Source: a virus. Taken from it: a stretch of 64,000 nucleotides of DNA. The notes under the pieces are model-generated. The model saw nothing but the letters and a program-made list of their open reading frames with translations, searched no databases and had not been told where the DNA came from. Position numbers and translations under genes: made by a program. Shown here piece by piece: positions 2,273 to 28,032 of the stretch; the stretch's first letter is position 1; each line of letters starts with the position of its first letter. The stretch is from IMG/VR virus record IMGVR_UViG_3300047157_000152, positions 1-64,000 of that record, one strand, 5' to 3'.

Positions 2273-2779
2273 CTATAATGTTATTTGTTTTTCAATTTCA
2301 GGAGTTACATTATATTTCTTTTTGATAGCATCGAGCTTTCCACCGGCTTGTACAAAGTCTTTAGCTTTTTGTATAGCTGCTTTGTTCATAGGTAAACCAT
2401 TGGTTGCATCAGCATCTTTGGTATCATCAATTAGGAATAAATTACCTAATGCATATTTCTTCCCGTAACTTGAAGCAGTACCGAACTGTTGTGGTGTTTG
2501 CATACCTTTTTGATTAAGATCAACACCAACTAATGCTGTAGCATTTAAAGTGTTTTCTCCATCAGATATTGTTGCACAACTTTCAATAATAGGCACAGGG
2601 TTAGTCTCAACTAAATTTTCATTAATTGTTACTGTTACTCCTAATTCTAATAAATAGGGTTTTGTTGCTTCAAGGATGTCTTCGGCAGATCGGAAGTAAT
2701 ATTTGCCGAACGAATTAAATCTACTCTTTTTCGATTTAAATTTGGTCTGGATTGTGGCCAGTTTTTGGTTTAAGGTCAT
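2273..2779 (-). CDS. erf: ERF-family single-strand annealing protein
   Basis: A 168-residue recombinase of the ERF superfamily, known from P22 Erf, which anneals complementary single strands. The family signature is clear in the second half: QQFGTASSYGKKYAL followed by LFLIDDTKDADAT. The N-terminus (LATIQTKFKSKKS, then YYFRSAEDILEATKPYL) also fits. It precedes the exonuclease gene in the operon, so the two form a homologous recombination module. Shared segments in the fibre genes of this phage are possible substrates (inference). Confidence 0.88.
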   Translation of the reverse strand: MTLNQKLATIQTKFKSKKSRFNSFGKYYFRSAEDILEATKPYLLELGVTVTINENLVETNPVPIIESCATISDGENTLNATALVGVDLNQKGMQTPQQFGTASSYGKKYALGNLFLIDDTKDADATNGLPMNKAAIQKAKDFVQAGGKLDAIKKKYNVTPEIEKQITL

Positions 2780-2822: not shown

Positions 2823-3584
2823 CTACAGATAATCAAGCACTTGCGAGTGATCAACACTATCAATTAGCTTATCTACAGCTTGCTTTTTTAGCTCTGAAAC
2901 ACGTACATAAGCACTGCTTCCTTCGATGTTTAATATCTCTGCTATTTTGTTAGCCGAATGCTTTTCGCAGTCTAAACCATAGCTTAATCTTAACACATCA
3001 AACTCACGTTCATTAAGATGTCGTTTTAACAAACCAGTTAAATAAACATTTAACAAACCTATATTATAAGGCTCTGATTTGTCTGCTATTTGATAGATCA
3101 TAGACTCTTCATCGTCTTTAGGTTTTTCATCTATAGATAAAAACATACTATTAAAAAACATCGCAACCATTTTGTGGTCCTTGCCATTGTCTTTGCGTAT
3201 TTCATTTAGCTTATGTTCAGGTATTCTTATATCACCTCTATTTTTGTCAACAGCACGTCTGATACCACCTTTAATACGTTTAGACAAAAAAGACTTTAAT
3301 GTTTTTAACATATCATCTTCGTCGCCTACAACTCTAGCCCAGTCTATTCTACGTATAGCTTTAGTTAAGTTTAAGTTACCTTCTTGTATTATATCATTAA
3401 TACTCATAACACCTGAAGCTTGTTGTGTTGTAGCAAACTTACGGCCTATATTTTCTACAAGAGGTAGGAATCTATATGTTAACTGTTTCTCTGTTAGTTC
3501 ATTTAATGGTATTTCTTCATCAGGTTGACAAGCAATAACATCTTTTTTATATCTAACATAATTAGGTACGTTATATTTTTTCAT
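2823..3584 (-). CDS. Phage RNA polymerase sigma factor (sigma-70 family)
   Basis: A 253-residue sigma factor that would direct host RNA polymerase to phage promoters. Region 2 is recognisable at about 64-78 (DIIQEGNLNLTKAI, the core-binding and -10 helix). Region 4 lies at about 192-243, with LNEREFDVLRLSYGL and a helix-turn-helix (SANKIAEILNI) for -35 recognition. A basic linker (KRIKGGIRRAV) lies between. The first 14 bases overlap the upstream helix-turn-helix gene. A natural target set is the seven-copy 30-bp element at 6.5-11.35 kb; this link is an inference. Confidence 0.85.
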   Translation of the reverse strand: MKKYNVPNYVRYKKDVIACQPDEEIPLNELTEKQLTYRFLPLVENIGRKFATTQQASGVMSINDIIQEGNLNLTKAIRRIDWARVVGDEDDMLKTLKSFLSKRIKGGIRRAVDKNRGDIRIPEHKLNEIRKDNGKDHKMVAMFFNSMFLSIDEKPKDDEESMIYQIADKSEPYNIGLLNVYLTGLLKRHLNEREFDVLRLSYGLDCEKHSANKIAEILNIEGSSAYVRVSELKKQAVDKLIDSVDHSQVLDYL

Positions 3585-16082: not shown

Positions 16083-18275
16083 ATGGCTAATTTATCTAAT
16101 ATAAATAATAAGTTCCTAGTAACAACTGGAGGCAACGTAGGAATAGGAACCACTTCGCCTGCTAGTGTTTTACATATAAAAGATAATTCAGCTAACCCTA
16201 CACAATTAAGCATACAATCGAATGATTATTCAAGGGCTGAAGAAATTAATTTTTTAAACCCTTCTACAAGTGCAATTTCAGGTCAAATAAAATATTACAC
16301 AAATCCTACGGTTGAATATATGTCTTTTTCAACTTCTAACAATAGTGCTGCTGCCGAACGTATGCGTATTACAAACACCGGCAACGTCGGGATCGGAACA
16401 GTAAATCCAAAAACAAATTTTGAGGTAATAGGTGGTTTAAATATAAGTACTAACACAACTAGTGCAACAACCACAACTATGCGTATTGGGTCTTATGGTG
16501 CAAGTTCCCAAACATATTATGGAGCAAAACTTATAGCACATACAAATTTTACTTCAACAGCAAATGCTGATTTATCTTTTGATTTAGGAGGTCTTGGAGA
16601 AGTTATGCGACTTCATTGTAATGGTTCGGAAACAAGAGTAGGAATTGGAACGACTACGCCTAATGAAAAATTACAACTCGCTGGTAATCTTAATGCATAC
16701 GCTCCTGGTGGTATTGATGCTGGTTTATTTGCAAGTACTGCTGCTGGCTCAACAACTATTGCCTTAAGGTCAAGTGGAGTAACTCATTTTAATGGCGGCG
16801 ACGTAGGAATCGGGACAAGTTCGCCTGGTCATAAACTTAATATTGTAGGTGCTAATAACACCACTGCTGTTGGAATTGATTTTCCTTCTGCAAGTTATGA
16901 TTTTTCAGCTAACAGCACTAGTGGTTATACTACTTCATTCCATATGGATAACACTGGTACTTACATTGGTAGCAACAGTGCGGGTAGAGCTTTAATTTTT
17001 CAAACAAATGATACAGATAGATTATATATAAACGGAAATACAGGAAACGTCGGGATTGGGGTTACTGATCCACAAGCAAAACTTGAAGTTAAAGGCCCAA
17101 GCGCATCCCCGGCTGACGGTAATGAAGTAATCTCTGTAACAAATACAACTGGAGGAAGTAAGCTTCTTCTGGGGGTAGCAGAAAACCAATACGGATGGAT
17201 TCAGTCAGCAGAAGGCGGTACGTATAGGAATCTTCTTTTAAATCCACTTGGCGGCAACGTCGGGATCGGAGTGGTTGGGCCTACAAGTATTTTGGACATT
17301 AGACAGTCAATAGTGCCAAGAATTACTTTAGTAAAAAATGGAGTATTAAGTTGGTATATAGGAAATGTTCTTCAAGGCACCAGTAATAATTTTACAATTG
17401 GCACAGATTCTGGTGGCAACAACAATATATTAAACATTACGAACACAGGCAACGTCGGGATCGGGGAGGCTTCGCCTTCTGGAGCTTTGCACGTGAAATC
17501 TTCCACTGCCACTACTACAGGTATGGTTAGATTACAGAATGATATGGATAATAACTACGAAACCCTACGTATTGAGTCGTTAGGAAATTATGATGCTCAT
17601 ATTGGATTTCTAGCAAACGGAACTTCTGATTATTGGTGGGGAATTGGAATAGATTATTCTGATTCTGGTAAATTTAAAATTTCGGGAGATAATATATTAT
17701 CAGTTAATACTAGACTAACTATTGACACTTCAGGCAACGTCGGAATCGGGACGACTTCGCCTGGTGATGCAAAGTTATATGTAAATGGAGGAACAACTCT
17801 AGGGGGAAGCAATAACACGAGCGCTGGAGCTACAAGAATATTTGGAGATATAAAAAGACCTCAAGCTAATAATTTTGTTAGAAGAAATTATAATTTAACA
17901 GCGGGTTCAAGTAGTTCATTATATAGTATAGCAAGACAATGGCATGACCACGCTAACTGGGGATTAGGAAATATTAATGTTATAATGTGGGGTATTTATT
18001 ATGGTCAAGGTCAATATAATAAAGCAGATTTTTCCTGTAGGTATGGTTATAGTGGTGGTGGTGCCGACGTACAGACTAACTTTAACCCCAACGGCATGGT
18101 TGTGCCATCTTGGACATCAGCAACTCAAGTTTCTGGAAATATACATTATAGAGATTTACAAATTCAAATACCAGCATATTATCAAATTTCTTTTGAAATA
18201 ATAAGCCCAGGATGTGTACAAACTTATAATATAAATAACACGGCTAATAATACGGTATATTTATATCCTCATTAA
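16083..18275 (+). CDS. Tail fibre with GNVGIGT repeats
   Basis: A 730-residue fibre opening MANLSNINNKFLV, an N-terminal motif (MAxLxNINxxFxV) shared with the next two fibre genes. It has eight GNVGIGTxxP-like turns, each starting a beta module of 60-100 residues. One module (KGPSASPADGNEVISV to NLLLNPLGGNVGIG) is closely repeated in the 1027-residue fibre. The C-terminus (from about residue 600) is a unique globular tip with HDHANWGLGNINV. At the DNA level the repeats are unusually conserved and GC-rich for this genome. Confidence 0.82.
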   Translation: MANLSNINNKFLVTTGGNVGIGTTSPASVLHIKDNSANPTQLSIQSNDYSRAEEINFLNPSTSAISGQIKYYTNPTVEYMSFSTSNNSAAAERMRITNTGNVGIGTVNPKTNFEVIGGLNISTNTTSATTTTMRIGSYGASSQTYYGAKLIAHTNFTSTANADLSFDLGGLGEVMRLHCNGSETRVGIGTTTPNEKLQLAGNLNAYAPGGIDAGLFASTAAGSTTIALRSSGVTHFNGGDVGIGTSSPGHKLNIVGANNTTAVGIDFPSASYDFSANSTSGYTTSFHMDNTGTYIGSNSAGRALIFQTNDTDRLYINGNTGNVGIGVTDPQAKLEVKGPSASPADGNEVISVTNTTGGSKLLLGVAENQYGWIQSAEGGTYRNLLLNPLGGNVGIGVVGPTSILDIRQSIVPRITLVKNGVLSWYIGNVLQGTSNNFTIGTDSGGNNNILNITNTGNVGIGEASPSGALHVKSSTATTTGMVRLQNDMDNNYETLRIESLGNYDAHIGFLANGTSDYWWGIGIDYSDSGKFKISGDNILSVNTRLTIDTSGNVGIGTTSPGDAKLYVNGGTTLGGSNNTSAGATRIFGDIKRPQANNFVRRNYNLTAGSSSSLYSIARQWHDHANWGLGNINVIMWGIYYGQGQYNKADFSCRYGYSGGGADVQTNFNPNGMVVPSWTSATQVSGNIHYRDLQIQIPAYYQISFEIISPGCVQTYNINNTANNTVYLYPH
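16131..17762 (+). repeat. DNA-conserved fibre repeat, cluster 1
   Basis: Copies of a 30-bp unit beginning GGCAACGTCGGGATCGG at 16131, 16380, 16797, 17043, 17253, 17448 and 17733 (each about 30 bases). The codons GTC, GGG, ATC, ACG and TCG differ from the A/T-ending codons on either side. Confidence 0.8.
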
Positions 18276-18283
18276 ATAAATAA

Positions 18284-21200
18284 ATGGCATCATTATCTAA
18301 TATAAACGGGATATTTGACGTCCATTCTACTGGGGCTATACTTTTTAGTACATCTCATGGAACTTCTGGGCAGATATTAAAATCAAATGGTAATGCAGCT
18401 CCAACTTGGGTAGCAGCTTCAACTGTTATTGGTGGACCATATTTACCTTTGACAGGTGGCACGCTTACTGGTAATTTAGCTATTAGCGCTTCTAATAGCT
18501 TAACAGTTAATGGACAATTTAATATTAATGGTACTGGTAATTGGTCGTTTAGAACCGTAAGTGGAGGAAACCTTATTTTAAAAGATGAATCAAACAATGC
18601 GGATAGAGTTGATTTTCATACAGATGGACAAGTTGAAATTTTAGCAGCAGGAAGTAGATTTTATCCAAGTATAATTTTTAATAATGATATAAACACAGGT
18701 ATATATCATGCTGCTTCTGACACTTTAGGGTTTTCAGGTGGAGGAAATGAATTAATGACATTGAACTATAGTAATGGTATTAAGCTTTCACAATATGGTT
18801 CAGGATCATACACAGGTACAACAGCTTATAATTTAGCTGTAGATTCAAGTGGTAATATAATTGAAACAACAGATGGTGGTGGTGATATAACAGGTAGTGG
18901 AACAACAAATACTGTAGCTAAATTTACAGGTGCTAAAGCAATAGGTAATGGACCTATAACTTTTGCAACTAATAACTCAACTTTTGCAGGAACTGTACAA
19001 ACAACAGGTGTAAAAACGCCATATATTGAATCAGCAGCAACAAACCAAAGTTTATTTTTATATGCCAATGGTAGTGGTCATATATATTTTGGTGATTCTA
19101 CTAACGGAACAAATCTTTATCATTATAGTAATTCTAATGACGGTAAATATACTTCTTATGGTTTTGATGGGAATTATTATACAATTTCAACAACAGCAAC
19201 AAGCGGTGTTAAAATTAACGATCCTCTTCTTGTTATTGGTAGCGCTACTATTACAAACACTGGCGCTAACCCTACAATTACTTTAATAGAAAATAGCGGT
19301 GGAACTCAAAATGCTAAAATAGAGTTTGATCAGGCTGGTGAAAATCAATTATACATAACAACTAATTATGTAAGTCCTAGTGATAGTAATAGAATATTGT
19401 TGCAACCAGGTACTTACCCAGCTTTAATAGCATCGGGTGGTGCTAATGGCGCTATTAATACAAAAGTAGAAATTTCAGGAACTTTACTAGCTAACAGAAA
19501 TATACAAACTCCAAACAGTGATCTTAGCACTGGATCAAATCCAACTAATTTTGGTATTTATACTTCAGAAATAAGATTAATAGATACTCCTAATGGTGGA
19601 TTACAAAAATGTAGAGTAATTACAGATAATTATGGGGAATGGATTTTAGTAGGTAGGTATGCTGCTAGCGCAATGTCAGCTATTCAAAACACATGGAGCT
19701 CAGTCAGTGGACTATCACTTGACACAACTCAAAGCGCAACCACACAATTTTCTGCTGATTTTGGTGATAGTTATCCTACAGAAGTTAGGATAATGGGGGC
19801 TACAGATTTTACTAAATGGAGAGATAATAGAACAATTGACTTTATTTATGGTGTTCCAGAAGGAAGGGCATGGAAATATTTCTTTAGTGGAGGCGCAGAA
19901 AATGGCATGACATTTGTTGGCCCAAATCACAGTGGTAATAATAAGTATGGATGGAACATAAATGGTAGTTATGATGGATTCGGTAGGTGGGTAAACACAA
20001 CTCAGACTTCTGTAGGTATGTCAGATTCTAATGTTACAAACCCATCTGCGGCATATACAACAGCCACAACAAATGCTTTTAATTGGCATCCCGCTAGTGA
20101 TGCTAAAATGACCGTTTCAGCTACAAGAACATTTAGTGGACAAGATAGTTATGAAACAGCAGGATTTGGTAAAGATGATGCTAATCAAGGATTTTTTGAT
20201 GAATATCCTAATGAAGTTACAAATATGCAAGGTGGAATTGATTTTAGTTCTGCTGTATGGGTGTTAATAAAACTACCTACTGCTATAAGCAGTGGTTCTG
20301 GTGGTGGTTCTGGTAATCAGTGGGCTGGAGGGCCAACCACAATACACAATACTAATACTGGTTCTGTCGGTATAGGAACATTTAATCCATCGGTTACAGG
20401 AAAAGGATTACAAATTCAGAACATAGGGAACGATACGACAGCTTCGTTAAAATTAACAGGTCATAATAATACAGGCACACCAGGTGCAGCAACGTCTACA
20501 GAACTAAAACATATAGGAGATAGTTTAAAGTTTGCAATCAATCATGCGGGCACAGATGCGTTAACTATTGGTAGTAGCGCCAGTACAATAGGATTTACAC
20601 TTTCTAACACTACTGAATTAGGTACTTATCCAACAGGAGCTGTGAAAAGAATTAGAATGGCTCAAGGTGGTGAAATACATTTTGGAGATACAACAACCAC
20701 TGCGCCTTTAGGTGTAACAGAAGGAGAATGGAATAATTTTGCAGATCAAGATAGTTTAGGTATATATTCTCGTAATCATTTTAGCGTTTATTCTTACGGT
20801 GGAACATATACAAATCCCAAATTAAGAATAGATGATGCTGGATCATATTTTCAAGGATCAAACTTTGGTATTGGTGTTACTAACCCTACTTCAGGTAATT
20901 TAGTTTTACCTCAAGAAGAATCTAATCAGTTTAAAATAGCATTTACTGGTGCTTCTTCTAGCTCTGGTATATCCACTGTTGATCAAAGTGGCTCTGGTTT
21001 GTATATAGGAGCTAACTCAAGAGTAAATAATTCAGGTGTTATAACATATCACGATAGTGCATTAGATAGTAGTGGAATTTATTTTGACGGTTGGAACGGT
21101 AATGATATGGAGTTTTATACTGCACTTTCAGGAACCCCACAAAAAAGAATGGTTATAGATGCTTATGGTAGAGTAAATATCTATCAACAACTATGCGTGG

Positions 21201-22567
21201 GATCAACAACCGCGCCAACTAATGAAAAACTATTAGTTCAAAGTGGCTTGGGTAATGGTTCTGAAATATGGAGGTTTGGAACAAGTGGTCGTTATACTTT
21301 TACAGGGCATAAATTTTTTAATTCTATAACAGGAACTGCCACAAGTGATGGGTGGTATACAATAGGTAATGTAGGTGACAGTTCTTCAGTAATAATAAAC
21401 ATAATGACTGCGGCACACAGTTCGGCTACGATACTAGCATCTAGAGGTTATGGCCCTTCAAATGTCGCAAGGATACAAGTGCTTTCTTCGACTAAAAATG
21501 CTAATGGTGGTTATGCAAACATAAAAGCTGTAAGAATAAATGCAGGTGGATTAATAGACATGCAATTATATTGGAATAGCGGGCCAAATGTTTCGGTACA
21601 TTTAGCTTATTATGGGCTAGGTTGTGATATGCCAACAACTTTAGCACTCTCTGTTGGAGGCACTGGTGTTTATCCGTATAATATTATGGATACAGCTACA
21701 TTTAGAAATACAGCTGCCTCTGCTAGAGTTGCAGGTGAACTAGATGTTGCTAGTCAAGTACATGCTAGTAGTAATATAAATGTTTATAGCACAAGTAAAA
21801 TATATTTTAATGCAACAACTAATAGTGATCAATATATAGGTGCAATATCAAATAATGATTTAGACATAGCAGCTGGTGATGATATAAATTATAGATCTAA
21901 TTTTAGTAGATTTTTTAGTGGTACAACAGAACATGCTAGAATATCAGGTCTTAATAATCAAAATAATTGGATTGCAAATGCTACTGGTGGAAAATTAGGT
22001 GTTGGTAATGCTTCTCCGCAAACTACTTTACACACTGGGCCTACAACTACAATTACTAATGTATTTACAGCTAGATTTGCTGCAAGTAACTTTTTTGCTA
22101 GTGGTGGAAATAGTATGTTTTACGTTCCTGATACAGCTGCAAATATAATGATGTTTGGCAGTAATCAATTTGGAACTAATCAAATAGAATTTTACCATAA
22201 AAATCCGGGAACAAGTCAAGCTTATGTAGGGAGAATATCTACATCTGGTTCAGCAACTTCATACGTTACAAGTTCAGATTATAGATTAAAGGAAAATATA
22301 ATTCCTTTGAGTGATTCTATATCTAGAATTAATCAATTAAAACCAAGTAGATTTAATTTTATAGAAGAACCTGGTAAGGTAGTAGATGGATTTATAGCGC
22401 ATGAAGTACAAGATATAGTTCCTGAAGCTATTGTGGGAGAAAAAGATGAAGTTGATGAAGAAGGTGGTATTATACCGCAAGGTATAGATCAAGCTAAGTT
22501 AGTACCACTATTAGTAGCGGCAGTACAAGAATTAGAAGCAAGAGTAAAAGAATTAGAAAATAAATAA
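18284..22567 (+). CDS. Tail fibre with C-terminal peptidase S74 chaperone
   Basis: A 1427-residue fibre. N-terminus MASLSNINGIFDV matches its two neighbours. A long Gly/Ser/Thr/Asn-rich body follows, with few GNVGIGT units. Residues from about 1329 form an S74 intramolecular chaperone: TSSDYRLKENIIPL (the Ser and Lys of the autocleavage site), then INQLKPSRFNF, GFIAHEVQDIVPEAI and a final coiled coil (AAVQELEARVKELENK). In this family the domain trimerises the fibre and then cuts itself off. It is the only S74 domain in the cluster. Confidence 0.88.
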   Translation: MASLSNINGIFDVHSTGAILFSTSHGTSGQILKSNGNAAPTWVAASTVIGGPYLPLTGGTLTGNLAISASNSLTVNGQFNINGTGNWSFRTVSGGNLILKDESNNADRVDFHTDGQVEILAAGSRFYPSIIFNNDINTGIYHAASDTLGFSGGGNELMTLNYSNGIKLSQYGSGSYTGTTAYNLAVDSSGNIIETTDGGGDITGSGTTNTVAKFTGAKAIGNGPITFATNNSTFAGTVQTTGVKTPYIESAATNQSLFLYANGSGHIYFGDSTNGTNLYHYSNSNDGKYTSYGFDGNYYTISTTATSGVKINDPLLVIGSATITNTGANPTITLIENSGGTQNAKIEFDQAGENQLYITTNYVSPSDSNRILLQPGTYPALIASGGANGAINTKVEISGTLLANRNIQTPNSDLSTGSNPTNFGIYTSEIRLIDTPNGGLQKCRVITDNYGEWILVGRYAASAMSAIQNTWSSVSGLSLDTTQSATTQFSADFGDSYPTEVRIMGATDFTKWRDNRTIDFIYGVPEGRAWKYFFSGGAENGMTFVGPNHSGNNKYGWNINGSYDGFGRWVNTTQTSVGMSDSNVTNPSAAYTTATTNAFNWHPASDAKMTVSATRTFSGQDSYETAGFGKDDANQGFFDEYPNEVTNMQGGIDFSSAVWVLIKLPTAISSGSGGGSGNQWAGGPTTIHNTNTGSVGIGTFNPSVTGKGLQIQNIGNDTTASLKLTGHNNTGTPGAATSTELKHIGDSLKFAINHAGTDALTIGSSASTIGFTLSNTTELGTYPTGAVKRIRMAQGGEIHFGDTTTTAPLGVTEGEWNNFADQDSLGIYSRNHFSVYSYGGTYTNPKLRIDDAGSYFQGSNFGIGVTNPTSGNLVLPQEESNQFKIAFTGASSSSGISTVDQSGSGLYIGANSRVNNSGVITYHDSALDSSGIYFDGWNGNDMEFYTALSGTPQKRMVIDAYGRVNIYQQLCVGSTTAPTNEKLLVQSGLGNGSEIWRFGTSGRYTFTGHKFFNSITGTATSDGWYTIGNVGDSSSVIINIMTAAHSSATILASRGYGPSNVARIQVLSSTKNANGGYANIKAVRINAGGLIDMQLYWNSGPNVSVHLAYYGLGCDMPTTLALSVGGTGVYPYNIMDTATFRNTAASARVAGELDVASQVHASSNINVYSTSKIYFNATTNSDQYIGAISNNDLDIAAGDDINYRSNFSRFFSGTTEHARISGLNNQNNWIANATGGKLGVGNASPQTTLHTGPTTTITNVFTARFAASNFFASGGNSMFYVPDTAANIMMFGSNQFGTNQIEFYHKNPGTSQAYVGRISTSGSATSYVTSSDYRLKENIIPLSDSISRINQLKPSRFNFIEEPGKVVDGFIAHEVQDIVPEAIVGEKDEVDEEGGIIPQGIDQAKLVPLLVAAVQELEARVKELENK

Positions 22568-22568
22568 T

Positions 22569-25500
22569 ATGGCATTATTAACAAATATAAATGGTAAATT
22601 CAGCGTAAGTGACGCAGGTGCAGTAAGATTTAACGATGCGTTTACTTTTCCGACAGTAGATGGTACTGCTAATTACGTATTAAAAACAAATGGTAGTGGG
22701 CAACTAGCTTGGGCGCCTGATGCAAATACAGGAACTGTTACAGGATCTGGTACAGCCAATACAATGCCTGTTTGGACAAGCGCAAGCGCTTTAGGAAATA
22801 GTATAATTACTCAACCTAGCAGTGCTAATGTTAGAGTATCTGGTAGTAGTGTTTATTTTAGTGTTACAGACACTAGCGCAGCAGCTAGAAATATAGACAT
22901 AGGCCATTGGGTTGCAGGCCAAACCAATATAGAGTCTGTTGGTGGAATATTATCTATTGGAACACAATCAAATCACGATATTGTTTTTGAAACAAACGGA
23001 AGTACTAAAGCTACTATTTTAGCTAACGGCAACGTCGGGATCGGGACGAATTCGCCTAGTTCAAAACTTCAAGTAAGCGGTGATGCTTATGTTACTGAAG
23101 AATTTGGGCAAGGTGTTGCTATAGCTAACAAAGTAACTACTTACGGCGCAGAGTTTAGAAGTTCTGGAGCAAGTGCACAAGTGTTTTTTGGTAGGTCAGG
23201 CAACGACATAGGTTCAGGAGCTATAGGCGCAGATTCAAGTTATGTTTTTAGAGTGTGGAAGCCAACTGATTTTTCACAACCTTTTGTTATAGAGCAAGGC
23301 GGAAACGTCGGGATCGGTACGACTAGTCCTGATTCTAAGCTAGATGTAAAAGGACCATCAGCAACACCCGCTGACGGAAACCAAACGCTTTCAATTACAA
23401 ATTCAACAGGAGGAACGCAGTTGAATTTAGGTACTGCTGAAAATTCTTATGGATGGATAGAAGCAAGAGAAGGAAGTACTCTTAGAAATTTATTAATCAA
23501 TCCTAATGGTGGAAACGTAGGAATATCTGAAACAAGTCCTGATTCAACTCTTACAGTTGGAGGAAATTTTACAGCAACTACAACAAAACCAACAGTAAGT
23601 GTTTCTAACATGACAAGTGGTGGTTCTTTAGGAATTAGAGGACTATCACCTATATTAGCATTTGATAAAACAGCAGGTGGTGTTCCAAAAATATTAATGG
23701 ATGGTGGTGGTTTAGAATTTAAAAATGGAACATTAGATGCCCAAGGCGATGTCCATTTAAAAATAGACAGTTCTGGAAACGTAATTATTGGAAATTCAAG
23801 TGTTGATAATCCAAACTCATTAGATAAAGTTTTAGAAATTGAACATGGTGGCTCTGTTGGAGTAATATTAAACGATTCAAGAGATACTCCTATTGGATTA
23901 GAAAATAGAGGTGCTGTATTTCATTTAACACATAATACAAACTCAAGATTAGTTGTTGATGGTGCTTCAGGAAAAGTAGGAATTGGGGTTACAGACCCTG
24001 ATGCTAAATTAGAAATAAAAGGTACTGGTGCATCAACTGGTTTAACTTTTAAAACAACTGATTCTTCAGATAATGAAATATTTTATATTAAAGATGGTGG
24101 AGTAGTTGGCGTAAGATATTATCCATTTAAAATAGGTGTACCTAGTGGAACTGCTAATGTAGCTAATACTAGATTTCAAATAGCCACGACAGGTGGTGAT
24201 TTTGTAGTGTTAAATGACGGAAAAACCGGGATCGGGACGACTTCGCCTGGAAGAGGTTTAACTATTGACAAAAGTAATGCAAACGCTGCGTTAGAAATAA
24301 TAAAAAAGAACACGACTAATCAAATTGTTTATTTAGGTACTGGTTCCAGTGGAGGAACTGATGACCCTCTTTTACGAATGTTCCATAATACCACAGAAAA
24401 TATTAGATTATATACAACTGGTGATAGTTGGATTAATGGAGGCAACGTCGGGATCGGAACGACCCATCCTGACTCTAAATTAGAAGTTATAACATCTGGT
24501 GCAAATAGTGTTTTAGAATTAGATAATTCAAACACTAATTACACTGTAATTCAATATAACGCTAGTGGTGCGACAAAAGGATTTTCTGGATTTAATGCAG
24601 GATTTATGCTTTTCGGTGGGGAAGCTGGAACTACCCTAAGATTACAATCTGGTGGCTCTTATGCTGCTACGATTTTGGAAAATGGTAATTTTGGAATCGG
24701 AACGACTTCGCCTTTGAGTACATTAGATTTAGGAATTAATGGTGGACAAAAGTTTTATGTATATGCTAATGGTAGTATTAGGTCAGGAATGGGTATTGAT
24801 TTGTCTGGAAGCTCAAGAGAGTTAAGTATATTCCATACTAGTTCAAATAATATTGATGGTGATATAAGTTTAGGTTTAAGAAACGAAACATCAGGCCAAT
24901 ATGTTGAAAGAATGAGAGTGCAAGGTAACGGAAACGTAGGGATCGGAACGACTGGGCCAGTTAATAAATTAGGAATACAAGTTGCAGCAAATTCAAACAC
25001 AAAAGCAATTAATATATACAGCCTAAATACAAGTCCTAATTCTTATACAAGTATTGGTTCGCAGTATTCAATTTCTAATACTTATGTTGAATCAGAAATA
25101 AGGTTTGGAAATGAAACACAAAGCGGAGGGGGTTCTTATTTAGGTTTTGTTGCGGGTGGGTCAAATTCGGGTAATACAGAAAAAATGCGTATTACAAGCG
25201 CAGGCAACGTCGGGATCGGAGAGACTTCACCTACTGGTAAACTTCACGTGAAAGATGGTAGTGTTAATGCATTGTTTGTTACAAGTACAACTTGTGGTAA
25301 TGTTGGTATAAAAACAACCTCACCAAATGCAAGTTTAGTTGTTAAAGGAAATGTTAGTTATAGTTATAATAACTATAGCTCTGTAGCAAATACTTGGTCA
25401 AACGCATTAAACTTTAGTGGTTATCCAGCTGGATTATATCAAATTAATATATGTAAGCAAAGTAACGCAAGCGCATATATAATAGCTCAAATAAAGTGGA

Positions 25501-25652
25501 GCGGAACTGCTGGTACAGTTATTAATACTGTAACTTCTTTTCAATATGGCATTACATTTAGTGGTACACAATTACAATCAATAATAAATACAACAACAGC
25601 AAGCTCAATAAGTGCACAATGTTTAGTGACATACGAACTTGCGTGTGTATAA
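22569..25652 (+). CDS. Tail fibre with many GNVGIGT repeats
   Basis: A 1027-residue fibre starting one base after the S74 gene. N-terminus MALLTNINGKFSV is shared. About ten GNVGIGTTSP-type turns punctuate the body, seven of them nearly identical in DNA to those of the 730-residue fibre. The module KGPSATPADGNQTLSI to NLLINPNGGNVGIS pairs with the one in that fibre. The C-terminal 110 residues (SYNNYSSVANTWSNAL and on) form a different tip. No S74 domain, so folding may rely on another chaperone. Confidence 0.82.
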   Translation: MALLTNINGKFSVSDAGAVRFNDAFTFPTVDGTANYVLKTNGSGQLAWAPDANTGTVTGSGTANTMPVWTSASALGNSIITQPSSANVRVSGSSVYFSVTDTSAAARNIDIGHWVAGQTNIESVGGILSIGTQSNHDIVFETNGSTKATILANGNVGIGTNSPSSKLQVSGDAYVTEEFGQGVAIANKVTTYGAEFRSSGASAQVFFGRSGNDIGSGAIGADSSYVFRVWKPTDFSQPFVIEQGGNVGIGTTSPDSKLDVKGPSATPADGNQTLSITNSTGGTQLNLGTAENSYGWIEAREGSTLRNLLINPNGGNVGISETSPDSTLTVGGNFTATTTKPTVSVSNMTSGGSLGIRGLSPILAFDKTAGGVPKILMDGGGLEFKNGTLDAQGDVHLKIDSSGNVIIGNSSVDNPNSLDKVLEIEHGGSVGVILNDSRDTPIGLENRGAVFHLTHNTNSRLVVDGASGKVGIGVTDPDAKLEIKGTGASTGLTFKTTDSSDNEIFYIKDGGVVGVRYYPFKIGVPSGTANVANTRFQIATTGGDFVVLNDGKTGIGTTSPGRGLTIDKSNANAALEIIKKNTTNQIVYLGTGSSGGTDDPLLRMFHNTTENIRLYTTGDSWINGGNVGIGTTHPDSKLEVITSGANSVLELDNSNTNYTVIQYNASGATKGFSGFNAGFMLFGGEAGTTLRLQSGGSYAATILENGNFGIGTTSPLSTLDLGINGGQKFYVYANGSIRSGMGIDLSGSSRELSIFHTSSNNIDGDISLGLRNETSGQYVERMRVQGNGNVGIGTTGPVNKLGIQVAANSNTKAINIYSLNTSPNSYTSIGSQYSISNTYVESEIRFGNETQSGGGSYLGFVAGGSNSGNTEKMRITSAGNVGIGETSPTGKLHVKDGSVNALFVTSTTCGNVGIKTTSPNASLVVKGNVSYSYNNYSSVANTWSNALNFSGYPAGLYQINICKQSNASAYIIAQIKWSGTAGTVINTVTSFQYGITFSGTQLQSIINTTTASSISAQCLVTYELACV
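23028..25232 (+). repeat. DNA-conserved fibre repeat, cluster 2
   Basis: Same 30-bp unit as cluster 1 at 23028, 23301, 24219, 24441, 24684, 24930 and 25203. The unit at 24441 and that at 16380 agree in their first 19 bases although they lie in different genes. Confidence 0.8.
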
Positions 25653-26475: not shown

Positions 26476-28032
26476 ATGTCAAATGCAATTGTAAAGAATC
26501 TGAGCTTTGGTTCAGATGCTAAAGATAATGTGTTTGCTGGTATTACAAAACTTACACAAGCTGTTAGCTCCACGTTAGGGGCTAGCGGCAAATGTGTTAT
26601 TCTTGAAGATACTATAGGCAAGCCAATTATCACAAAAGATGGTGTAACAGTAGCAGAGTCTGTTATATTACGAGATCCAGTAGAAAACATGGGAGCAACT
26701 TTATTAAAAGAAGCTGCTAGAAAAACTGTTAAAGAAGCTGGTGATGGTACAACAACCGCTACAGTGTTAGCACACTCTATCTTAGAAGAGGCTTATAAAT
26801 TAGAAAACGAGCTTACATCAAGAGAAATTAAAAAAGGTATTTTATCTACAACTCAAAAAGTGATTGATCACTTACAGGCAAATTCTATACCTGTACAAGG
26901 AGATATGATAGATCAAGTAGCGACAATATCAACAAACAATGACCCAGAGCTTGGTAAAATTATAGCTGATGCATTTAGGTCTGTCGGTAAAAATGGTGTT
27001 GTTGTTTTAGAACCAACTGAATTATCAGATACTACTTTTGAATTAGTAGATGGTGTTCCATATAATAGAGGTTTAAAAAATATACATTTTGTAACAAACA
27101 AAGAGTCTAAAACTGCTGAACTAGATAAACCTTTGGTTTTATTAGTTGAATCAGAAATAGAAAATATAAGAAAAATACAAAATGTTTTAGAACATGTTAT
27201 TAAAAATAACAGGTCTTTGCTTATTATAGCTGACGTTAGCCAACAAGTGTTATCAGCTTTAGCTATGAATAAAGTTAAAGGCAATATAAAAGTAAATGTA
27301 ATAGACGCGCCTGTGTACGGTATAAGTAAGAAAGAAACATTAGATGATCTTTCAATATTAACAGGAGCTACAATTATAAACGAAGATTTAGGTGATGATA
27401 TTGATTTAATAGGCCCTGAGCATTTAGGTGAAATTAAAAAAAGTGTCACTGAGCAAAACGAAACAGTTTTACATTTAATAGAAACAACTGAAGAAGTTAA
27501 GTCTATGATTAAAAAAATGGAAGATGAATTAGTTGAGTGCACTGACCCTGTATTAACTGTTAAGTTAGAAAAAAGATTAGCTAGATTATCTGCTAAAGTA
27601 GCTATTGTAAAAGTAGGTGCTAACTCTGAAGTTGAGTTGCAAGAAAAACAAGCTAGAGTTGAAGATGCTATATGTGCAACTAAAGCTGCTATCAAACAAG
27701 GTATAGTTCCTGGTGGTGGTATTGCTTTATTAAATGCGGCTAATGATATAGAAACTAGTAGTAAGTCTGAAGAAGCACTGCTAGAAGCTATTAAGGCGCC
27801 TTTTAAGACCATCTTACATAATGCAGGTATAGAACAATACGAAATGCCAAGTGTATCAGGAGATGGAATAAACGTGGTTACAGGAAATATGGTAAATATG
27901 ATTGAGTTTGGGATTATAGATCCTTTACTCGTAACAAAAAGTGCATTAAACAATGCTGCTTCTGTTGCTACTACTATTTTGTCAACCGATTGTGTAATTA
28001 ATAATCTTAGAATTGATGAAGGCAATAGGTAG
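26476..28032 (+). CDS. groEL: Chaperonin GroEL
   Basis: A 518-residue phage Hsp60. Clear family motifs: ITKDGVTVA (52-60) and GDGTTTATVLA (89-99, with the ATP-hydrolysis aspartate at 90), EDAICATKAAIKQGIVPGGG and INVVTG. The apical domain is present. It lacks the GGM-repeat tail of E. coli GroEL and is about 30 residues shorter. The co-chaperonin gene overlaps its end. It probably forms its own folding chamber for phage proteins such as the capsid; whether it works with host GroES is unknown. Confidence 0.95.
   Translation: MSNAIVKNLSFGSDAKDNVFAGITKLTQAVSSTLGASGKCVILEDTIGKPIITKDGVTVAESVILRDPVENMGATLLKEAARKTVKEAGDGTTTATVLAHSILEEAYKLENELTSREIKKGILSTTQKVIDHLQANSIPVQGDMIDQVATISTNNDPELGKIIADAFRSVGKNGVVVLEPTELSDTTFELVDGVPYNRGLKNIHFVTNKESKTAELDKPLVLLVESEIENIRKIQNVLEHVIKNNRSLLIIADVSQQVLSALAMNKVKGNIKVNVIDAPVYGISKKETLDDLSILTGATIINEDLGDDIDLIGPEHLGEIKKSVTEQNETVLHLIETTEEVKSMIKKMEDELVECTDPVLTVKLEKRLARLSAKVAIVKVGANSEVELQEKQARVEDAICATKAAIKQGIVPGGGIALLNAANDIETSSKSEEALLEAIKAPFKTILHNAGIEQYEMPSVSGDGINVVTGNMVNMIEFGIIDPLLVTKSALNNAASVATTILSTDCVINNLRIDEGNR

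What the first reader, a model, noticed from the sequence alone, without database searches (positions are those of the whole stretch)
16131..25232. GNVGIGT repeats conserved as DNA, with foreign codon choice
At least 14 copies of a 30-bp unit starting GGCAACGTCGGGATCGG lie in two fibre genes about 5 kb apart. They use GTC, GGG, ATC, ACG and TCG, rare in flanking codons, so the DNA itself seems selected or homogenised. Such anchors would let the phage's exonuclease/ERF pair swap fibre modules and change host range. The S74 fibre between the two genes has only diverged versions.
Basis: partly seen in the sequence, partly recalled or inferred. Interest (0 to 1): 0.78.

Follow-up and report, generated by a model that had tools for sequence, protein, structure and literature searches.

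The report
Homogenised DNA joints in phage fibres
A short stretch of DNA that encodes the joint between exchangeable pieces of viral (and some bacterial) attachment fibres is kept alike within each genome even where the protein does not require it, and fibre pieces are cut and rejoined exactly there, which suggests that the joint also serves as the place where fibre modules recombine.

Summary
Two fibre genes (16083-18275 and 22569-25652) carry 18 copies of a GNVGIGTTSP-type unit. Codons 0-8 (27 nt) use GTC, GGG, ATC, ACG, TCG, AAC and GGC 77 times against 15.6 expected (z 17), while the codons on either side are normal.

The effect is not private to this phage. In 118 viral and 117 bacterial/archaeal contigs gathered without regard to synonymous sites, codon choice departs from the host ORF only in these nine codons. 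Equally conserved neighbours (P9, L13, V15) show nothing, and the preference learned from viruses predicts the cellular set. Copies within one contig are alike at synonymous sites only inside the unit, and this decays with distance.

Module breakpoints lie at the units: 43 of 183 alignment ends against 10.5 expected, with crossovers resolved inside units. Modules 87-97% identical occur in phages whose backbones are 62-71% identical or unalignable.

Best reading: the unit encodes the capping loop of a Bdellovibrio-MAT-like beta-helix and its DNA is a homology anchor for module recombination. Recombination is shown; selection for it, the Erf/Exo role and host-range change are inferred. The shared cross-domain consensus is unexplained.

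The parts
16083..18275 (+). fibre gene A (730 aa), 8 units
   Evidence: ORF; phrog_18345 and phrog_9942 tail fiber protein
22569..25652 (+). fibre gene C (1027 aa), 10 units (one degenerate)
   Evidence: ORF; phrog_9942 and phrog_18345; PDB relatives are Bdellovibrio MAT fibres
18284..22567 (+). S74-chaperone fibre between the two, only 3 diverged unit-like motifs
   Evidence: Peptidase_S74 PF13884 E 2.3e-10; motifs
16131..16159 (+). unit A1 GNVGIGTTSP (diverged codons)
16380..16408 (+). unit A2 (exact 17-mer); left edge of a module 90% identical in L267
16632..16660 (+). unit A3 TRVGIGTTTP; left edge of a module 93% identical in L246
16797..16825 (+). unit A4 GDVGIGTSSP; right edge of that module
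17043..17071 (+). unit A5
17253..17281 (+). unit A6 (exact 17-mer)
17448..17476 (+). unit A7 (exact 17-mer)
17733..17761 (+). unit A8, 28/29 to consensus
23028..23056 (+). unit C1 (exact 17-mer), 28/29 to consensus
23301..23329 (+). unit C2; left edge of a module 93-96% identical in L255 and L246
23511..23539 (+). unit C3 (diverged); recombined with C5 in L246
   Evidence: crossover resolved
23775..23803 (+). unit C4 (degenerate, GNVIIGNSSV)
23970..23998 (+). unit C5; left edge of a module 98.6-99.3% identical in L246 and L247
24219..24247 (+). unit C6 GKTGIGTTSP; module boundary in L246, L251, L252, L254
24441..24469 (+). unit C7 (exact 17-mer); module boundary in L246, L251, L254
24684..24712 (+). 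unit C8 GNFGIGTTSP; boundary in L246 and L249
24930..24958 (+). unit C9; boundary in L249 and L247
25203..25231 (+). unit C10 (exact 17-mer); about 545 bp of extra sequence sits here in L248
1543..2271 (-). exonuclease VIII / DUF3799-type nuclease (candidate recombination exonuclease)
   Evidence: phrog_412 E 1.3e-34, PF12684 E 1.7e-24
2273..2779 (-). Erf-like single-strand annealing protein (candidate recombinase)
   Evidence: phrog_155 E 7.1e-32

Best explanation
Each unit encodes the capping loop that joins successive beta-helix modules of a trimeric fibre, and the same 27 nt act as a homology anchor. Unequal or ectopic recombination between units, within a gene, between the two fibre genes or with another phage, deletes, duplicates or imports whole modules in frame. 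Units are homogenised within a genome because they keep being recombined. Shown: unit-limited synonymous bias, within-genome homogenisation that decays with distance, module boundaries and crossovers at units, and near-identical modules shared by divergent phages. Inferred: that annealing by the phage's Erf and exonuclease does it, that anchor identity is selected because it helps fibre shuffling, and that the outcome is altered receptor binding.
For: Codon bias confined to codons 0-8: G/df 8-99 inside, about 1-3 outside including conserved P9, L13, V15; replicated in bacteria and archaea, cross-validated, with contig-bootstrap confidence intervals. Third-base preference persists when the amino acid differs (codon 2 C z 5.2, codon 6 G z 4.5, codon 8 G z 5.7). 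Within-contig codon identity 1.3-2.4 times expectation inside viral units, about 1.0 at K12, L13, V15, falling 1.65, 1.52, 1.32 with distance in viruses and 1.67, 1.38, 1.16 in cells. Breakpoints at units: 43/183 v 10.5 sd 3.2. In L246 the sequence matches window unit 23511 30/30 on the left and unit 23970 40/40 on the right, switching within shared GTAGGAAT. Module identity 87-97% against backbone 62-71% or none. Erf plus Exo are present; the phage D3 Erf/Exo pair recombines 78%-identical DNA (PMC3945230).
Against: Most internal alignment ends (140 of 183) are not at units, so other junctions exist. Linkage between synonymous positions within an ORF is mostly limited to adjacent codons. Random units from different phages are not more codon-identical than codon usage predicts. 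The same pattern in bacterial and archaeal contigs, where no Erf was looked for, means a phage recombinase need not be the cause. Selection on protein joints alone could also place successful breakpoints there. No reads or experiments were available.
Confidence: 0.72

Rival explanations
1. Replication slippage or RecA-type recombination between nearby direct repeats. The units are merely the longest direct repeats in the gene; slipped mispairing deletes and duplicates modules and makes hybrid units. No dedicated system and no selection for recombination.
For: Homogenisation is strongest between neighbours up to 350 nt apart and decays with distance, in cells as well as in phages. Copies are all in direct orientation.
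Against: Modules are also shared by phages with unalignable backbones, and units in different ORFs of a contig are homogenised too (1.51 viral, 1.27 cellular). Slippage does not explain one shared codon consensus across viruses and cells.
Confidence: 0.4
2. Protein-structure filter: breakpoints occur anywhere, but only swaps at the capping loop give folded trimers, so surviving breakpoints sit at units. The DNA signal is separate.
For: The units match the published MAT capping-loop motif (PMC10769870) and are the best-predicted parts of a module model (pLDDT about 80-91).
Against: Gives no reason for synonymous-site homogenisation confined to 27 nt, or for normal codons at the conserved P9, L13, V15. 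Crossover inside 8-14 nt of shared sequence looks homologous.
Confidence: 0.25
3. Translational selection: the codons are chosen for slow or accurate translation at the joint so that the trimer can fold.
For: Rare codons in AT-rich phages; several preferred codons end in C.
Against: In mid-to-high GC genomes the commonest codons GGC, GTC and ATC are the enriched ones, so rarity is not the rule. Three Gly codons all followed by A have different preferences (C at codon 0; not A at codon 3; G at codon 5). Third-base preference survives amino-acid replacement. Other conserved sites show none.
Confidence: 0.1
4. RNA or single-strand DNA hairpin (CGTC...GACG) or a dyad protein-binding site in the unit.
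For: Preferred third bases C6, C9, G18, G21 complete a CGTC/GACG dyad. Real units fold 0.9 kcal/mol lower than codon-resampled ones (p 6.5e-6).
Against: Not lower than position-permuted units (p 0.19). Complementary covariation at 6-21 and 9-18 is no stronger than at non-paired positions. The exact 17-mer is in the GNVGIG frame in 149 of 150 cases, so it is not a free-standing site.
Confidence: 0.06

Closest known systems
T-even phage distal tail fibre recombination at conserved motifs (Tetart, Desplats and Krisch 1998; seen here only as a citation in PMC10408124, content from memory)
   Same: Short conserved motifs inside a fibre gene serve as sites where homologous recombination swaps adhesin segments
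   Different: Different motif and protein. Here the anchor is repeated up to 10 times per gene, bounds many modules, and shows unit-limited synonymous homogenisation in phages and in bacterial and archaeal genomes
Conserved DNA motifs flanking receptor-binding domains of coliphages, proposed as recombination hotspots (PMC10408124)
   Same: DNA conserved above its surroundings next to exchanged receptor-binding segments
   Different: Those lie up- and downstream of the domain, in six lytic phage genera; these are internal, repeated coding units found across very distant phages and cells
Bdellovibrio mosaic adhesive trimer (MAT) fibres (PMC10769870; PDB 8ond, 8oml, 8onc)
   Same: Same protein motif (capping loop) and beta-helix fold: the sequence hits and the best fold hits are MAT fibres
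   Different: In the passages read, the paper treats the protein only; DNA-level constraint and recombination at the loops were not mentioned
Erf/Red-type relaxed homologous recombination and phage mosaicism (PMC3945230)
   Same: Annealing recombinase plus exonuclease recombining short, diverged homologies; traces of homology at mosaic boundaries
   Different: There the homology is whatever the two phages happen to share; here a repeated anchor is kept homogenised

Membership tests
Recombination-anchor motif in fibre genes (T-even type) | module breakpoints coincide with the motif | tested here: met
   43/183 v 10.5 expected; nt-level junctions
Recombination-anchor motif in fibre genes (T-even type) | motif more conserved as DNA than its surroundings | tested here: inconclusive
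   within a genome yes; between contigs only as a shared codon bias and an excess of near-identical 27-mers, not as higher mean identity
Recombination-anchor motif in fibre genes (T-even type) | recombination changes adhesin specificity | not testable with these tools
   no phenotype data
Bdellovibrio MAT / S74-type trimeric beta-helix fibre | capping-loop motif V-G-..-P-X-X-X-L | tested here: met
   V2 G3 ... P9 x x x L13 conserved; published consensus in PMC10769870
Bdellovibrio MAT / S74-type trimeric beta-helix fibre | similar beta-helix fold | tested here: inconclusive
   Foldseek hits 8ond, 8oml, 8onc E 4e-6 to 8e-4, but model pLDDT 70, pTM 0.51 and low TM-scores
Bdellovibrio MAT / S74-type trimeric beta-helix fibre | N-terminal signal peptide and conserved ~130 aa beta-rich domain (MAT) | not tested
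   the fibres of the window start MANLSNIN / MALLTNIN; no signal-peptide search was run
Site-specific inversion (shufflon) system | inverted repeat sites and an invertase | tested here: inconclusive
   all units direct, same strand; no invertase search was run
Free-standing DNA site such as Chi or a regulator site | occurs in other frames or outside coding sequence | tested here: not met
   149 of 150 exact 17-mers in the GNVGIG frame

The most novel reading that the evidence does not exclude
The 27-nt unit is a trans-domain recombination address: a nucleotide sequence shared by fibre genes of unrelated phages, bacteria and archaea and kept recognisable by selection for exchange, so that adhesin modules can circulate through a common pool regardless of genome base composition.
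Probability: 0.25. Interest if true: 0.85.

Novelty: new variant of a known kind. Interest (0 to 1): 0.68.

Why it matters
Fibre mosaicism in phages is well known, but what guides breakpoints is usually guessed from a few isolates. Here a very common fibre motif carries a synonymous-site signature with sharp edges and built-in controls, so the question of whether phages keep DNA anchors for adhesin shuffling becomes testable with recoding experiments. The same signature in cellular contigs, including candidate-phylum (CPR) and DPANN genomes, ties phage fibres to the adhesive trimers of predatory and probably other attached bacteria.

Tried and rejected
RNA hairpin: no specific covariation, no excess stability over position-permuted units. 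Rare-codon or pausing model: fails in GC-richer genomes, where the common codons are enriched. Simple GC-rich anchor: GGG is avoided at codon 0 (59 v 113) but preferred at codon 5 (284 v 117), and C-ending codons are avoided at codon 6 (106 v 182). Mixing of average codon usage: GGG and ACG exceed any pool average. One clonal DNA element: nearly every haplotype is distinct. Pairwise synonymous divergence with both flanks homologous could not be done: only 2 such pairs. DNA search of the fibre against named phages found nothing. Literature searches for the motif found no paper on it.

Full report
Observation. The window lies in a 67.7-kb viral contig. Its terminase is closest to a spring podovirus and to Flavobacterium and Cellulophaga phages, so a phage of aquatic Bacteroidota is likely. 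Two fibre genes, on either side of an S74-chaperone fibre, carry 8 and 10 copies of a GNVGIGTTSP-type unit. The exact 17-mer occurs 6 times, and 12 times with up to 3 mismatches. In an AT-rich genome (GC 0.338) the nine codons of the unit use otherwise rare codons 77 times against 15.6 expected, z 17. The next 12 codons and the 12 before show no shift. The S74 fibre has only diverged copies.

Is it general? I scanned viral contigs and bacterial/archaeal contigs with a fully degenerate back-translation of GNVGIGTT(S/T)P, so that synonymous sites were free. In each ORF I compared the codons at each position around GNVGIG with the codon usage of the rest of that ORF. The deviation per degree of freedom is 8-99 at codons 0-8 and about 1-3 elsewhere, including P9 (321 of 344), L13 (282) and V15 (208), which are conserved in the protein. 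The cellular set gives nearly the same profile, though codons 1, 7 and 8 are weak there. Codons preferred in viruses predict cellular units and the reverse. Contig-bootstrap ratios in viruses: GGC 2.7 (2.3-3.2), GTC 2.5 (1.8-3.2), GGG 2.7 (2.0-3.4), ACG 2.9 (2.3-3.5); five control codons give 0.87-1.10, and one, I-4, gives 1.33 in viruses but 0.74 in cells. The consensus is roughly GGC AAC GTC GGN ATY GGG ACG ACK AGT|TCG. Third-base preference persists where the amino acid is replaced, which points to nucleotides rather than codons, although recent replacement would look the same.

Conserved or homogenised? Random units from different contigs are not more codon-identical than codon usage predicts, so the unit is not conserved DNA in the simple sense. 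Copies within one contig are: 1.3-2.4 times expectation at codons 0-9 in viruses and about 1.1-1.7 at codons 0-8 in cells, and about 0.8-1.1 at K12, L13, V15. The effect falls with distance along a gene in both sets and is present between ORFs. Near-identical 27-mers shared by different contigs are 143 against about 31 simulated. This is the signature of concerted evolution by recombination over a very short stretch, plus some sharing between genomes.

Breakpoints. Comparing the fibre genes with relatives, segments of about 190-290 nt at 85-99% identity begin and end at units. Among unit-bearing viral ORFs of the sets not selected on unit DNA, 43 of 183 distinct internal alignment ends fall in units against 10.5 sd 3.2 under circular shifts (maximum of 500: 22); a larger set that includes DNA-selected contigs agrees. 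Phages L251, L255, L253 and L254 share modules at 89-97% although their backbones are 64-71% identical or unalignable. Junctions can be read directly: L246 joins the left flank of window unit 23511 (30/30) to the right flank of unit 23970 (40/40), switching within GTAGGAAT inside the unit; L248 carries about 545 bp more at unit 25203. Most other ends lie elsewhere, so the units are one class of junction, not the only one.

Anatomy and mechanism. The sequence relatives of solved structure are Bdellovibrio MAT fibres; the paper describes capping loops with motif V-G-..-P-X-X-X-L closing a beta-helix cleft (PMC10769870). A model of three modules is all-beta, most confident at the units, with MAT fibres as best fold matches; the model is modest (pLDDT 70) and supports the fold only loosely. 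The unit is therefore probably a structural joint, a natural place for swaps. The phage encodes adjacent Exo VIII-like and Erf proteins, and an Erf/Exo pair is known to recombine diverged DNA (PMC3945230). I infer that annealing between units makes and swaps modules, but slippage between direct repeats explains the within-gene part equally well, and the cellular contigs suggest that no phage enzyme is strictly needed.

What remains open. Recombination at units and within-genome homogenisation are shown. That the unit is kept alike because recombination is useful is inference. The shared consensus across viruses and cells is not explained by composition, 3' context, codon rarity or a hairpin; continued exchange with weak selection is the best guess. 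Host-range consequences were not tested.

Noticed in passing
L337-L454: GNVGIGT-bearing genes in cellular genomes come strikingly often from Patescibacteria/CPR (about 20 of the 80 listed) and DPANN archaea (about 6), besides Bacteroidota, Omnitrophota and Bdellovibrionota: lineages with attached or predatory members. MAT-like fibres may be a general host-attachment tool there. Baseline frequency in the collection was not measured.
   Followed up: no
window 22569-22780 and 18257-18520: The 5' ends of the fibre genes (MANLSNIN / MASLSNIN / MALLTNIN) are shared with other phages at 72-89% and end abruptly about 200 nt in, a second class of module junction.
   Followed up: partly
L455 (Synechococcus phage S-CRES1): A cultured phage with 11 units; seven share the start GGC AAY GTT GGY ATH GG, while others carry GTC with GGG, so two unit variants coexist in one gene.
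   Followed up: partly
window unit consensus positions 3-24: Preferred third bases complete the dyad CGTC-GGNATNGG-GACG; no covariation support, but position pairs 3-24, 6-21, 9-18 and 12-15 all prefer complementary bases.
   Followed up: yes
window 26476-28032: Phage-encoded GroEL-like chaperonin directly downstream of the fibre cluster; the related podovirus MW202828 also has a groEL gene, there beside a 10-kDa chaperonin gene.
   Followed up: no
window 2823-3584 (-): Phage sigma factor (phrog_351, E 1.5e-15), adjacent to the Erf gene.
   Followed up: no
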